Part shown: in pieces, positions 7,193-12,804 of the stretch
Position numbering within the stretch: position 1 is the stretch's first letter
Layout of the letters: every line of letters starts with the position of its first letter
Assembly (NCBI GenBank): GCA_021775875.1
Contig: JAJFHA010000007.1
Span: 62,001 to 126,000 of the forward strand
From: Hyphomicrobiales bacterium
Lineage (GTDB): Bacteria; Pseudomonadota; Alphaproteobacteria; Rhizobiales; NORP267
Reading direction: 5' to 3'
DNA: 64,000 bases
The notes under the pieces: model-generated
Databases searched by the model: none
The model's input: only the letters and a program-made list of their open reading frames with translations
Told to the model about the DNA's origin: nothing
Made by a program: the position numbers and the translations under genes

Positions 7193-8527
7193 TCATACCA
7201 ACGCCGTTCGTATGCCGATCTGTCTGTGCGCCAAATATGCCGACCAGAAAGGCCAGATGATGAATACAATAAGTACAGCAAGAGCTGCCCCAGACAGCCC
7301 CAGCCATGGAACAAAAATGGTGTTGCCCAGCACGAGAACGACAATGCTGACGGCAAAAACTGGCAGGCAATGCTTTTCCTGACCCGTCAGGGTAAGAACT
7401 TGGGTAGCTGGTCCTGCCGCAGCTCTCAGGACCTGTGCGAGCATGAGCAAGAGAAGACACCCATAGCCCGCTTTGAATTCTTCTCCAAATAATCCGAGCA
7501 AGTCTGACCCGAACGCATATATCAGGGCAAACGACACAATGCTTCCAGCAAGCGTCACCGCATTTGCATTTCGGATTATTGAGCGCACTTGGACCAACTC
7601 CGCGCTCTGGAGAGCGTCAGCGGTGTCTCGTAAAATCAGTTGATGAACAGCTTGAATGGCGAACCCGACAAGAAGGGAAATCTTCAGGCATACGCCAAAT
7701 ATTCCGGTCTGCGTTCCATCAAGGAAAAACCGGGATACCACTATGGTCAAGTCTGCAAATACTCCGATGAACAAACCTGCCAACACTAGTGGCACGGCCC
7801 GTCCTCGCCAATCAGCAACGAATTCTGGTTTAGGCACAGAACCTTGTGCGGTGCCAAAGCTTGAAATTGGGTTTCCGTCCGTGACGCGCCACAACTGCCA
7901 AACAGCAATTATAGTAGCAATTGCTCCATTGGCGATGAGAACGGCTTGAATGCTCATCTGCTCCCAGAAGAACCACAATGCCAGGACAAACAGGAGCAGA
8001 CAAAGAGGGCGCACAAAAAGTTCAGGTAAAAAACCGAGTTCAAACCGCTTCAGCGCATTGGCCAACGCCCCGTTGAGGCGCAAAAATGCAAACGCAGGCA
8101 GCATTAGGGCGGCAAAAAACAGACTATCGCGCGTACTTTGCATAATATTTGGCAACAACATCCCGCCAACAATCAACAGCCCTAAGGCAGCAACGCACAG
8201 AACAAACGTGTCCAAACGTGCACGTGCCATAAATTTTGGTAACAGTGAATTGTCTGCTCCCGCTGCAGATTGCGCGGCAATTTTAGGGACTAGGGCTGGA
8301 TAGCCCATAGTGCAAACGATGGAAAGAATTGCCGCACAGCCCGTGGAGAAGAAAAATAGCCCGATATGTTCCGCGCTCAGGAATATTGCAAGAAGCATCT
8401 GGATTAAGATGCCCAATGCCGCCCCAGCTATCCTTGCGCCAACAACCATGCTTGACGAGCGGAGTAATGAATATCTCTTCAGCGGTTCGCTGATTGGTCG
8501 TGGTTCACTCATGCCGCGATCGCCCAT
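7193..8527 (-). CDS. Polysaccharide/oligosaccharide flippase (Wzx/MATE-like) membrane protein
   Basis: 444 aa, about 12 hydrophobic segments; RSSSMVVGARIAGAALGILIQMLLA N-terminus typical of flippases. Confidence 0.75.
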   Translation of the reverse strand: MGDRGMSEPRPISEPLKRYSLLRSSSMVVGARIAGAALGILIQMLLAIFLSAEHIGLFFFSTGCAAILSIVCTMGYPALVPKIAAQSAAGADNSLLPKFMARARLDTFVLCVAALGLLIVGGMLLPNIMQSTRDSLFFAALMLPAFAFLRLNGALANALKRFELGFLPELFVRPLCLLLFVLALWFFWEQMSIQAVLIANGAIATIIAVWQLWRVTDGNPISSFGTAQGSVPKPEFVADWRGRAVPLVLAGLFIGVFADLTIVVSRFFLDGTQTGIFGVCLKISLLVGFAIQAVHQLILRDTADALQSAELVQVRSIIRNANAVTLAGSIVSFALIYAFGSDLLGLFGEEFKAGYGCLLLLMLAQVLRAAAGPATQVLTLTGQEKHCLPVFAVSIVVLVLGNTIFVPWLGLSGAALAVLIVFIIWPFWSAYLAHRQIGIRTALV

Positions 8528-8536
8528 TTCTGGTTC

Positions 8537-9607
8537 TCAGGCTCCTACCGCAGCAGTCTTGACAGTCCAGGGGGTCGAAACGTTCAGCTTCCTGCAAACC
8601 GATTCAACAGCATTCAGAGTGTCGCCCGAAAGCCAGACGCCCTCTCTCATGCTGCGGTTGTAGTTGCGCCAGCGGATTTCACCGGGCAAAAGCACTTCAT
8701 CTTGAGGGTTTGACGCTTTGATGAGTGCTGTAAGATGATTCAGCCGGGACTTAAATACCTCCAATGGCATGAAACATGAAATATCCAGGGCAATCATAAA
8801 ATGCCCATTCTGCCCTGGTTCGGTGACGTCCTGATACATCGAACCAACATCATCTGACACGCCGGCACCGGTGAGAACGCCAGCCAAAATCTCTACCAGA
8901 AGTGAAAGGCCATATCCCTTGGCACCCGCAGCGGGAAGAAGTGCCCCACCCGAAACTTTGGCCGGGTCTGTAATCGCACTGCCATCTGAGTTAATTGCCA
9001 GCCCTTCAGGCAATGACGAACCGCTAGCGATATATTCGCGCACGGTTGACCCGGCGAGTGCGCTCGTGGCCATATCGAAAAGCAGGCTCTCGCCATTTTC
9101 GCGAGGAGCACCAAAGGCAAGCGGATTTGTGCCAAGCACAGGTGTCAAACCATTATGTGCCGTGACCTTCGGGAAGGAATTACTCATGACCAACCCAATC
9201 ATTTCTGACTTTGCGGCTTGATTTACAAAAAACGCGCCCGTTCCAAAAAAATTGCTGTTTCGGACTCCAACCGACCCGACACCATTGATCCGCGCGATTT
9301 CAATCGCCCGGTCCATTGCGAGACCTGCGGCAAACTGGCCAAACCCACCGTCCGCATCAAGGAGTGCTGCAGACAGCGAAACGTCCTTGAATTTAGGCAC
9401 GCACGGAGTATTTAGACCCCCTTGTGCAACCCGCTCTAGATAGATTGGCAAGCGAAGCAAGCCGAAATTTTCACGACCGACGAGCTCGCTCCACACCAGG
9501 TTATCTGCGACACTGGTTGCCTGGAGATCATCTACACCTCCAGCTTTCAATATGGTCAAACACAATTCATGCAAGCGCTTGTGTTCGATAAGAATGGGCT
9601 CCTTCAT
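8537..9607 (-). CDS. Malate/L-lactate dehydrogenase (LDH2) family oxidoreductase
   Basis: VGVRNSNFFGTGAFFVNQAA, LTPVLGTNPLAFGAPRENGESLLFDMATSALAGSTVREY, GAKGYGLSLLVEILAGVLTGAG. Confidence 0.9.
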   Translation of the reverse strand: MKEPILIEHKRLHELCLTILKAGGVDDLQATSVADNLVWSELVGRENFGLLRLPIYLERVAQGGLNTPCVPKFKDVSLSAALLDADGGFGQFAAGLAMDRAIEIARINGVGSVGVRNSNFFGTGAFFVNQAAKSEMIGLVMSNSFPKVTAHNGLTPVLGTNPLAFGAPRENGESLLFDMATSALAGSTVREYIASGSSLPEGLAINSDGSAITDPAKVSGGALLPAAGAKGYGLSLLVEILAGVLTGAGVSDDVGSMYQDVTEPGQNGHFMIALDISCFMPLEVFKSRLNHLTALIKASNPQDEVLLPGEIRWRNYNRSMREGVWLSGDTLNAVESVCRKLNVSTPWTVKTAAVGA

Positions 9608-12004: not shown

Positions 12005-12033
12005 TTTTTGCCTGCTGCTTGTGTAATAGGTGT

Positions 12034-12804
12034 CTAGTCGAACGTACAACCGTCTGCTTTCAGTTGTGAATCCACCCAATCGTTCGAAAAAATGCCGCGC
12101 TTGACATCCTTAATGTACTTTTTCATTTGGGCCTGGTGGGCCGTAAGCTTAAGAATTGCGCTGTGAACGAAGTGTCTTGCAACAACCACGACACCGCTGC
12201 TGTCGGCGGAGATCAAATCTCCCGGATTGACCACAATCCCACCGCAGGTGATTGCAAAGTTTAGTTCGCCGGGGCCCCGGTGGAGTGGACCAAAAGAAGT
12301 AACGCCCCGTGCATAAACCGGCAATCCGGTTTCCTTGACCCCGTCAAGGTCGCGAATAAGGCCATCGATTACAAAACCGGCGATGCCCCGATGGAGCGCT
12401 TTGTTGGCAATCAGATCACCAAAGACTGCGTTTCTGTCGCTGCCGCTGGTGTCTACAACTACGACATCTCCGGGTTGGGCTACATCAAGCGCTTTGTGCA
12501 GCATCAGATTGTCGCCAGGGTACAACTTGACCGTGATCGCGGGCCCCACAAGAGGCTTTTCGTTTACAAGGTTCCTGATGGTGTGATGCATGGTGTACAT
12601 ACGGTTGAGAAGATCAGAAATATCGGTTGTTTCAAACTTGCGGAAAACTTCGATAAGTTCTCTTGTCGGTCGGTCAATCTCCGCTCGAATCTGGAACCCC
12701 ATTCCAGGAGTCATTTCGGCCGATTTCGGCTTTGTTTGAATTTTTGTCCTCTTCCCCGGATTTGGGCGAAAATCAGTGACACGAGTATTGTTTTTTTGAC
12801 GCAT
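12034..12804 (-). CDS. RraA family protein (HMG aldolase/oxaloacetate decarboxylase-like)
   Basis: ETTDISDLL, GPAITVKLYPGDNLMLHKALDVAQPGDVVVVDTSG, GIAGFVIDGLIRDLDGVKETGLPVYARGVTSFG; AAGGAAA RBS. Confidence 0.88.
   Translation of the reverse strand: MRQKNNTRVTDFRPNPGKRTKIQTKPKSAEMTPGMGFQIRAEIDRPTRELIEVFRKFETTDISDLLNRMYTMHHTIRNLVNEKPLVGPAITVKLYPGDNLMLHKALDVAQPGDVVVVDTSGSDRNAVFGDLIANKALHRGIAGFVIDGLIRDLDGVKETGLPVYARGVTSFGPLHRGPGELNFAITCGGIVVNPGDLISADSSGVVVVARHFVHSAILKLTAHQAQMKKYIKDVKRGIFSNDWVDSQLKADGCTFD

What the first reader, a model, noticed from the sequence alone, without database searches (positions are those of the whole stretch)
7193..12804. Uncharacterised five-gene operon: RraA-like / two ATP-grasp ligases / LDH2 dehydrogenase / flippase
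Seen: five co-directional minus-strand genes with very tight junctions (30, 10, -4 and 9 bp). Established: RraA-fold proteins include HMG/oxaloacetate aldolase-decarboxylases; the LDH2 family reduces 2-oxo acids or cyclic imines; ATP-grasp ligases form amide/peptide bonds; Wzx/MATE-like proteins export lipid-linked or small polar molecules. Inference: a compact pathway making and exporting a hydroxy-acid- or amino-acid-derived amide, or decorating a cell-surface glycan. One ligase resembles the ATP-grasp half of cyanophycin synthetase but has no Mur-ligase domain. I recognise no characterised cluster with this composition. This is my best candidate for an undescribed system.
Basis: partly seen in the sequence, partly recalled or inferred. 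Interest (0 to 1): 0.85.

Follow-up and report, generated by a model that had tools for sequence, protein, structure and literature searches.

The report
Mobile hydroxy-acid glycan-decoration cassette
Five tightly packed genes form an uncharacterised cassette, found in bacteria of about ten phyla and often inside polysaccharide gene clusters, that most likely builds an unusual hydroxy acid and couples it to a cell-surface sugar chain; the chemistry is inferred, not shown.

Summary
Five minus-strand genes (RraA-like, CphA-like ATP-grasp, second ATP-grasp, LDH2-family dehydrogenase, Wzx-like flippase) lie at 7193-12804 with gaps of 29, 10, -4 and 9 bp. The first four recur together. Of 80 loci picked only by the second ligase, 57 have RraA, 62 the CphA-like ligase and 60 a dehydrogenase within 6 kb, across Proteobacteria, Planctomycetota, Acidobacteria, Ignavibacteriae, KSB1, Actinobacteria and others. 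The dehydrogenase slot is filled by four unrelated families; LDH2 and DUF1932 never co-occur (p=1e-5). Many loci add a 2OG-Fe(II) oxygenase and sit in exopolysaccharide clusters. The flippase belongs to a stand-alone version in Hyphomicrobiales and near relatives.

The window's LDH2 has Phe at both histidines described as invariant in its family. The block is a variable cargo at a tRNA-Leu 3' end: a same-genus genome carries two other genes there.

Best reading: a transferable cassette that makes a 2-hydroxy-acid-type unit and ligates it to a lipid-linked surface glycan (about 0.5). The product is unknown, and no paper on the cassette was found in an open-access-only library. New variant of a known kind.

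The parts
12034..12804 (-). RraA-like protein, predicted pyruvate-dependent class II aldolase/decarboxylase
   Evidence: PF03737 3.5e-47; closest PDB 3NOJ HMG/CHA aldolase 8e-31; D-X20-R-D motif read in the sequence and kept across 58 cassette homologues
12349..12417 (-). D130-X20-R151-D152 motif of RraA-type pyruvate aldolases
   Evidence: sequence; family conservation; aligned to 3NOJ
10844..12004 (-). CphA-like ATP-grasp ligase without Mur-ligase domain (CphL); ATG start preferred to TTG at 12079
   Evidence: TIGR02068 1e-51 over model positions 204-474 of 862; PDB cyanophycin synthases; K158, D326, E345, N347 (numbered from the TTG) conserved in 62 homologues
9604..10833 (-). second ATP-grasp ligase (AG2), carboxylate-amine ligase type; the most cassette-specific gene
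   Evidence: AF2 model pLDDT 92 with ATP-grasp fold, nearest PDB TM about 0.55-0.6; metal-site residues E289, E303, N305 invariant in 32
8537..9607 (-). LDH2-family (malate/L-lactate dehydrogenase type 2) protein with altered active site
   Evidence: PF02615 8.8e-97; F48 and F120 where AllD has His44 and His116
9464..9475 (-). R45-E-N-F48: subfamily Arg and first lost histidine of LDH2
9248..9250 (-). F120: second lost histidine (AllD His116)
7193..8527 (-). Wzx-like oligosaccharide flippase of the MOP superfamily
   Evidence: homologues carry PF01943 and are named O-antigen export / flippase proteins
6916..13630 (.). variable cargo block; in same-genus genome G002 a different 1.44-kb segment (MarR regulator plus small membrane protein) lies here
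   Evidence: blastn of window against L109 and L110; ORFs of L109
13631..13717 (-). tRNA-Leu(CAA); its 3' end marks the right edge of the variable block

Best explanation
The block is a transferable biosynthetic cassette. RraA (aldolase or decarboxylase acting on pyruvate or a relative) and a dedicated oxidoreductase make a small 2-hydroxy/2-oxo-acid-type building block. Two ATP-grasp ligases then activate carboxylates and form one or two amide (less likely ester) bonds, coupling that unit, possibly through an amino acid, to a sugar of a lipid-linked surface-glycan precursor. In the window's lineage the cassette brings its own Wzx-type flippase to move the decorated precursor across the membrane; elsewhere the host polysaccharide cluster supplies flippase, polymerase and glycosyltransferases, and often a 2OG-Fe(II) oxygenase modifies the unit further. 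Shown: gene content, conservation, exchange of the dehydrogenase among unrelated families, glycan context, variable location, and conserved aldolase and ligase active-site residues. Inferred: the substrates, the order of steps, the bond type and the glycan target.
For: Conserved core order RraA-CphL-AG2-dehydrogenase across about ten phyla; 44 of 80 loci have RraA, CphL and a dehydrogenase within 6 kb of AG2. The dehydrogenase slot is filled by LDH2 (43 loci), DUF1932/6PGDH-like (13), D-2-hydroxyacid dehydrogenase (2) or isopropylmalate-type (6, three of them together with LDH2), with no LDH2+DUF1932 co-occurrence (Fisher p 1.1e-5; Pfam) and at least 6 changes on the AG2 tree: a shared hydroxy-acid/oxo-acid step. 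D-X20-R-D in RraA (role of Arg123 in PMC5065237). Glycan genes (glycosyltransferases, Wzx, Wzy, Wzz, WbaP, MBOAT, GINT1_N) within 10 kb in 29 of 48 well-flanked loci. A 2OG-Fe(II) oxygenase within 6 kb in 24 loci. Cassette flippase of the Wzx type. Own genome has two Wzy_C polymerases and six GT1 genes elsewhere. Precedents: an ATP-grasp domain amidates capsule glucuronic acid in C. jejuni (PMC11800379), and N-linked lactic acid occurs on a marine capsule sugar (PMC7281560).
Against: In the window the cassette stands alone, with no glycosyltransferase beside it. No substrate could be read from either ligase. The window's LDH2 has lost both histidines held to be catalytic, so ordinary 2-oxo-acid reduction is doubtful. 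Six KSB1/Calditrichia/Deltaproteobacteria loci have both ligases, most of them in glycan clusters, but no RraA or dehydrogenase, so the ligases may act without that supply branch. A D-2-hydroxyacid dehydrogenase at two loci alone could be chance.
Confidence: 0.5

Rival explanations
1. A small soluble natural product: the four enzymes make a hydroxy-acid or amino-acid amide (dipeptide-like), and the MOP-superfamily transporter exports it directly, like a MATE exporter.
For: Stand-alone five-gene operon in the window and relatives with no glycan genes recognised within the flanks read (L003, L004, L008, L009, L012); two ATP-grasp ligases suffice for a small amide.
Against: 29 of 48 well-flanked loci lie in glycan clusters; flippase homologues carry PF01943 (Wzx type) rather than MatE alone; most loci lack the cassette flippase.
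Confidence: 0.2
2. Cell-wall precursor modification: the dehydrogenase supplies a 2-hydroxy acid and an ATP-grasp ligase joins it to a peptidoglycan precursor, as VanH and VanA do with D-lactate.
For: Same logic of a hydroxy-acid dehydrogenase plus an ATP-grasp ligase; the best PDB sequence matches of the AG2 profile are VanA chains (1e-7, over about 90 residues); MurJ is a MOP-superfamily relative of Wzx (own knowledge).
Against: No VanX-type peptidase or Mur genes seen nearby; the context is exopolysaccharide; the fold search puts AG2 no nearer to Ddl/VanA than to PurK or biotin carboxylase.
Confidence: 0.1
3. A reserve or osmolyte pathway (cyanophycin-like or N-acetylglutaminylglutamine-like peptide) with an associated oxo-acid branch.
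For: CphL resembles the ATP-grasp part of cyanophycin synthetase and of N-acetylglutaminylglutamine synthetase.
Against: No Mur-ligase half; recurring link to glycan genes and a flippase.
Confidence: 0.05
4. Chance neighbours of ordinary metabolic genes.
For: RraA-like and LDH2 proteins are common in catabolic operons (own knowledge).
Against: Conserved order across phyla and tight junctions; 1-2 family members per 3.1-Mb genome make repeated adjacency by chance negligible.
Confidence: 0.01

Closest known systems
Campylobacter jejuni capsule amidation (ATP-grasp domain of Cj1438, with Cj1435)
   Same: An ATP-grasp domain in a glycan cluster forms an amide on a capsule sugar (PMC11800379).
   Different: There one TupA-like ATP-grasp domain fused to a GT2 attaches serinol-P or ethanolamine-P; here two free-standing ligases of other ATP-grasp families, plus aldolase and dehydrogenase, with no glycosyltransferase fusion.
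VanH-VanA (D-lactate dehydrogenase plus D-Ala-D-Lac ligase; own knowledge)
   Same: A dedicated hydroxy-acid dehydrogenase paired with an ATP-grasp ligase.
   Different: No VanX seen, no close sequence kinship, mostly different dehydrogenase families, glycan context.
Cyanophycin synthetase CphA (and N-acetylglutaminylglutamine synthetase)
   Same: CphL matches the ATP-grasp part.
   Different: No Mur-ligase half; about 386 aa; different operon.
HMG/CHA aldolase and RraA family
   Same: Fold, D-X20-R-D motif.
   Different: Own C-terminal signature G-x-F-x-N-x-W-V-D; not in an aromatic catabolic operon; below the NCBIfam cut-offs for both CHA aldolase equivalogs, above that of the functionally unnamed PRK06201 subfamily.
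L-sulfolactate dehydrogenase-like (LDH2) family
   Same: Pfam Ldh_2; NAD-contact positions T160, P162, D178, K230 and substrate Arg (R52) kept.
   Different: Both histidines described as invariant are Phe here; new R45 shared by the cassette type.

Membership tests
LDH2 / L-sulfolactate dehydrogenase-like family | whole-length Ldh_2 homology | tested here: met
   PF02615 8.8e-97, residues 8-333
LDH2 / L-sulfolactate dehydrogenase-like family | His44 and His116 (AllD numbering), said to be invariant and catalytic (PMC3527362) | tested here: not met
   F48/F120 in the window; of 47 rows including the window, 16 F/F, 13 H/F, 4 Q/F, only 2 cassette rows H/H (L078, L080) besides the paralogue
LDH2 / L-sulfolactate dehydrogenase-like family | NAD-contact residues and substrate Arg | tested here: met
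   T160, P162, D178, K230, R52 conserved
RraA-type pyruvate aldolases | D-X20-R-D motif | tested here: met
   D130, R151, D152; kept in family
RraA-type pyruvate aldolases | aldolase or decarboxylase activity | not testable with these tools
   needs enzyme assay
Cyanophycin synthetase | ATP-grasp plus Mur-ligase domain | tested here: not met
   matches model positions 204-474 of 862 only; 176 bits against cut-off 850
ATP-grasp ligases | fold and conserved ATP/metal residues in both ligases | tested here: met
Wzx flippases (MOP superfamily, PF01943) | PF01943 homology | tested here: met
   not above threshold for the window protein, but many of its close homologues carry it
Wzx flippases (MOP superfamily, PF01943) | transport of lipid-linked glycan | not testable with these tools
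   needs genetics
Surface-glycan biosynthesis cluster | glycosyltransferase, Wzx, Wzy genes in the cluster | tested here: inconclusive
   29 of 48 well-flanked homologous loci yes; window locus no, apart from its own flippase

The most novel reading that the evidence does not exclude
A horizontally spread biosynthetic cassette, present in about ten phyla and undescribed, makes a new class of glycan substituent (a hydroxy-acid pseudopeptide), using an LDH2-type oxidoreductase that has abandoned the family's catalytic histidines for a different chemistry.
Probability: 0.25. Interest if true: 0.8.

Novelty: new variant of a known kind. Interest (0 to 1): 0.6.

Why it matters
Bacterial glycans carry many amide-linked hydroxy-acid and amino-acid groups, and the genes for some of them are not known (own knowledge). 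A compact, widespread, exchangeable four-gene core gives a direct handle: the same dehydrogenase slot filled by four unrelated families points at the chemistry, and the His-less LDH2 challenges the view that this enzyme family needs a histidine. If the product is found, it would let a surface modification be predicted from sequence across many phyla.

Tried and rejected
PHROGs gave nothing. The plasmid search listed only distant ATP-grasp hits, 29% identity at best among the rows shown. PDB sequence search of AG2 alone and of the flippase and oxygenase profiles was empty; the AG2 profile gave weak VanA hits. The AG2 fold search gave generic ATP-grasp matches only and no substrate clue. No attachment-site repeat of the tRNA 3' end was found between 6300 and 13600, and no integrase is apparent among the ORFs of the block. 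The 2OG-Fe oxygenase seen in relatives is not detectable in the window's genome. Literature searches for the combination found no description; Iyer et al. 2009 on amidoligases, the most likely place for an earlier prediction, is not held. Promoter and terminator scans were at chance level. Considered and rejected: aromatic catabolism (no ring-cleavage genes seen), cyanophycin synthesis (no Mur domain), chance adjacency.

Full report
Observation. The five genes are real and arranged as described. The CphA-like gene probably starts at the ATG at 12004, giving junctions of 29, 10, -4 and 9 bp. The window lies in a 3.1-Mb genome, 100% complete. One same-genus genome (G001) holds its operon on a 46,234-base contig, the length of the contig of Hyphomicrobiales MAG OFTM169 (L004), so I take them to be the same (inference).

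Is it a unit? I searched GTDB genomes with an alignment of the second ligase (AG2) only and read the flanks of 80 loci. Within 6 kb of AG2, RraA is found at 57 loci, the CphA-like ligase at 62 and a dehydrogenase of one of four families at 60; 44 have all three. Of 48 loci with at least 4.5 kb on both sides the numbers are 38, 41 and 38. The window's genome has two RraA-like, one CphL, one AG2 and two LDH2 genes, so chance adjacency within 12 kb would be about 1% or less for each. By record titles the loci come from Alpha-, Gamma- and Deltaproteobacteria, Planctomycetota, KSB1, Calditrichia, Ignavibacteriae, Gemmatimonadetes, Acidobacteria, Actinobacteria and Chloroflexi. The loci are not independent of each other, but the AG2 tree shows deep, well-separated branches.

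The dehydrogenase slot. LDH2 (PF02615) is present at 43 loci. Thirteen others have a 6PGDH-like DUF1932 protein, and the two never meet (Fisher p 1.1e-5; the test treats loci as independent). Two further loci have a D-2-hydroxyacid dehydrogenase (L024, about 80 bp upstream of RraA; L038), and six actinobacterial loci have an isopropylmalate-type dehydrogenase, three of them without LDH2. Dehydrogenase type changes at least six times on the AG2 tree. Replacement by unrelated enzymes that mostly act on hydroxy or oxo acids is the strongest clue to the chemistry. The two D-2-hydroxyacid cases alone could be chance.

The odd LDH2. In AllD, His116 is proposed as catalytic base and His44 stacks on the nicotinamide; both are said to be invariant in the family, and all members are expected to use one of them (PMC3527362). 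The window's protein has Phe at both positions. Among cassette homologues the second His is replaced, mostly by Phe, nearly everywhere and the first is His, Phe, Gln or Tyr. NAD-contact positions and the substrate Arg are kept, and an Arg (R45) three residues before the first His position is present in every cassette LDH2 read at that position except the two canonical H/H actinobacterial ones. So the protein probably still binds NAD(H), but its proton chemistry is unexplained; a substrate that needs no general acid, such as an iminium, is one possibility (inference).

Other parts. RraA keeps the D-X20-R-D motif of pyruvate aldolases ([quoted passage not shown] Both ligases keep ATP and metal residues. 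AG2 folds confidently as ATP-grasp but has no near solved relative. The flippase is Wzx-like by its homologues and occurs mainly in the Hyphomicrobiales clade around the window. An extra protein without a Pfam match, at 24 loci within 6 kb, has HxD...H residues and folds as a 2OG-Fe(II) oxygenase; the window's genome appears to lack it.

Context. Of 48 well-flanked loci, 29 have glycan-assembly genes within 10 kb: GT2, GT4, Wzx, Wzy, Wzz, WbaP, MBOAT, GINT1_N. These counts come from single-sequence seeds and crude ORF calls, so they are approximate. The window's cassette stands alone, but its genome has two Wzy_C genes and six GT1 genes elsewhere.

Variable location. In same-genus G002 the flanks (MerR-like gene; tRNA-Leu and DedA) align at 86%, while the 6.7 kb between 6915 and 13628 are replaced by 1.44 kb with a MarR regulator and a small membrane protein. 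In G001 the flanking genes are 0.8 kb apart and the operon is on another contig. GC3 of the five genes is 0.51-0.55 against 0.57-0.67 for most neighbours (TPMT is 0.47). This fits acquisition at the tRNA 3' end, though no repeat or integrase was found.

Mechanism and limits. Best reading: RraA and the dehydrogenase make a hydroxy-acid-type unit; the ligases couple it, probably by amide bonds, to a lipid-linked glycan; a Wzx flips it. Precedents for the parts are the ATP-grasp amidation of capsule glucuronic acid in C. jejuni (PMC11800379) and N-linked lactic acid on a marine capsule sugar (PMC7281560). Substrates, order, bond and target are inferred. Novelty rests on an open-access library and on family databases without a name for the cassette; an earlier prediction in Iyer et al. 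2009 could not be checked.

Noticed in passing
window 6916-13630; L109 3367-4809: A variable cargo slot at the tRNA-Leu(CAA) 3' end: the five-gene cassette in the window, a MarR-type regulator plus small membrane protein in a same-genus genome.
   Followed up: partly
window 8537-9607 and 45 homologous loci: LDH2-family proteins mostly without the family's two histidines, with a new conserved Arg; how they would work is unexplained.
   Followed up: partly
L025, L028, L031, L039, L045, L049: KSB1/Calditrichia/Deltaproteobacteria loci with both ligases but no RraA or dehydrogenase; several have MBOAT plus a DUF1574/DltD-like protein next to them.
   Followed up: partly
L021, L065, L071, L095/L096: Cassettes or loci with two AG2 ligases, suggesting an extra ligation step or a longer product.
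   Followed up: no
L013, L014, L021, L022, L029, L030, L033, L061, L064: A protein of about 540 aa with GINT1_N (glucosamine inositolphosphorylceramide transferase 1 N-terminal) recurs near the cassette.
   Followed up: no
L058, L068, L071, L078, L080, L082: Actinobacterial AG2 loci carry an isopropylmalate-type dehydrogenase near the ligase; at L078 and L080 the LDH2 keeps both histidines, so the chemistry may differ there.
   Followed up: partly
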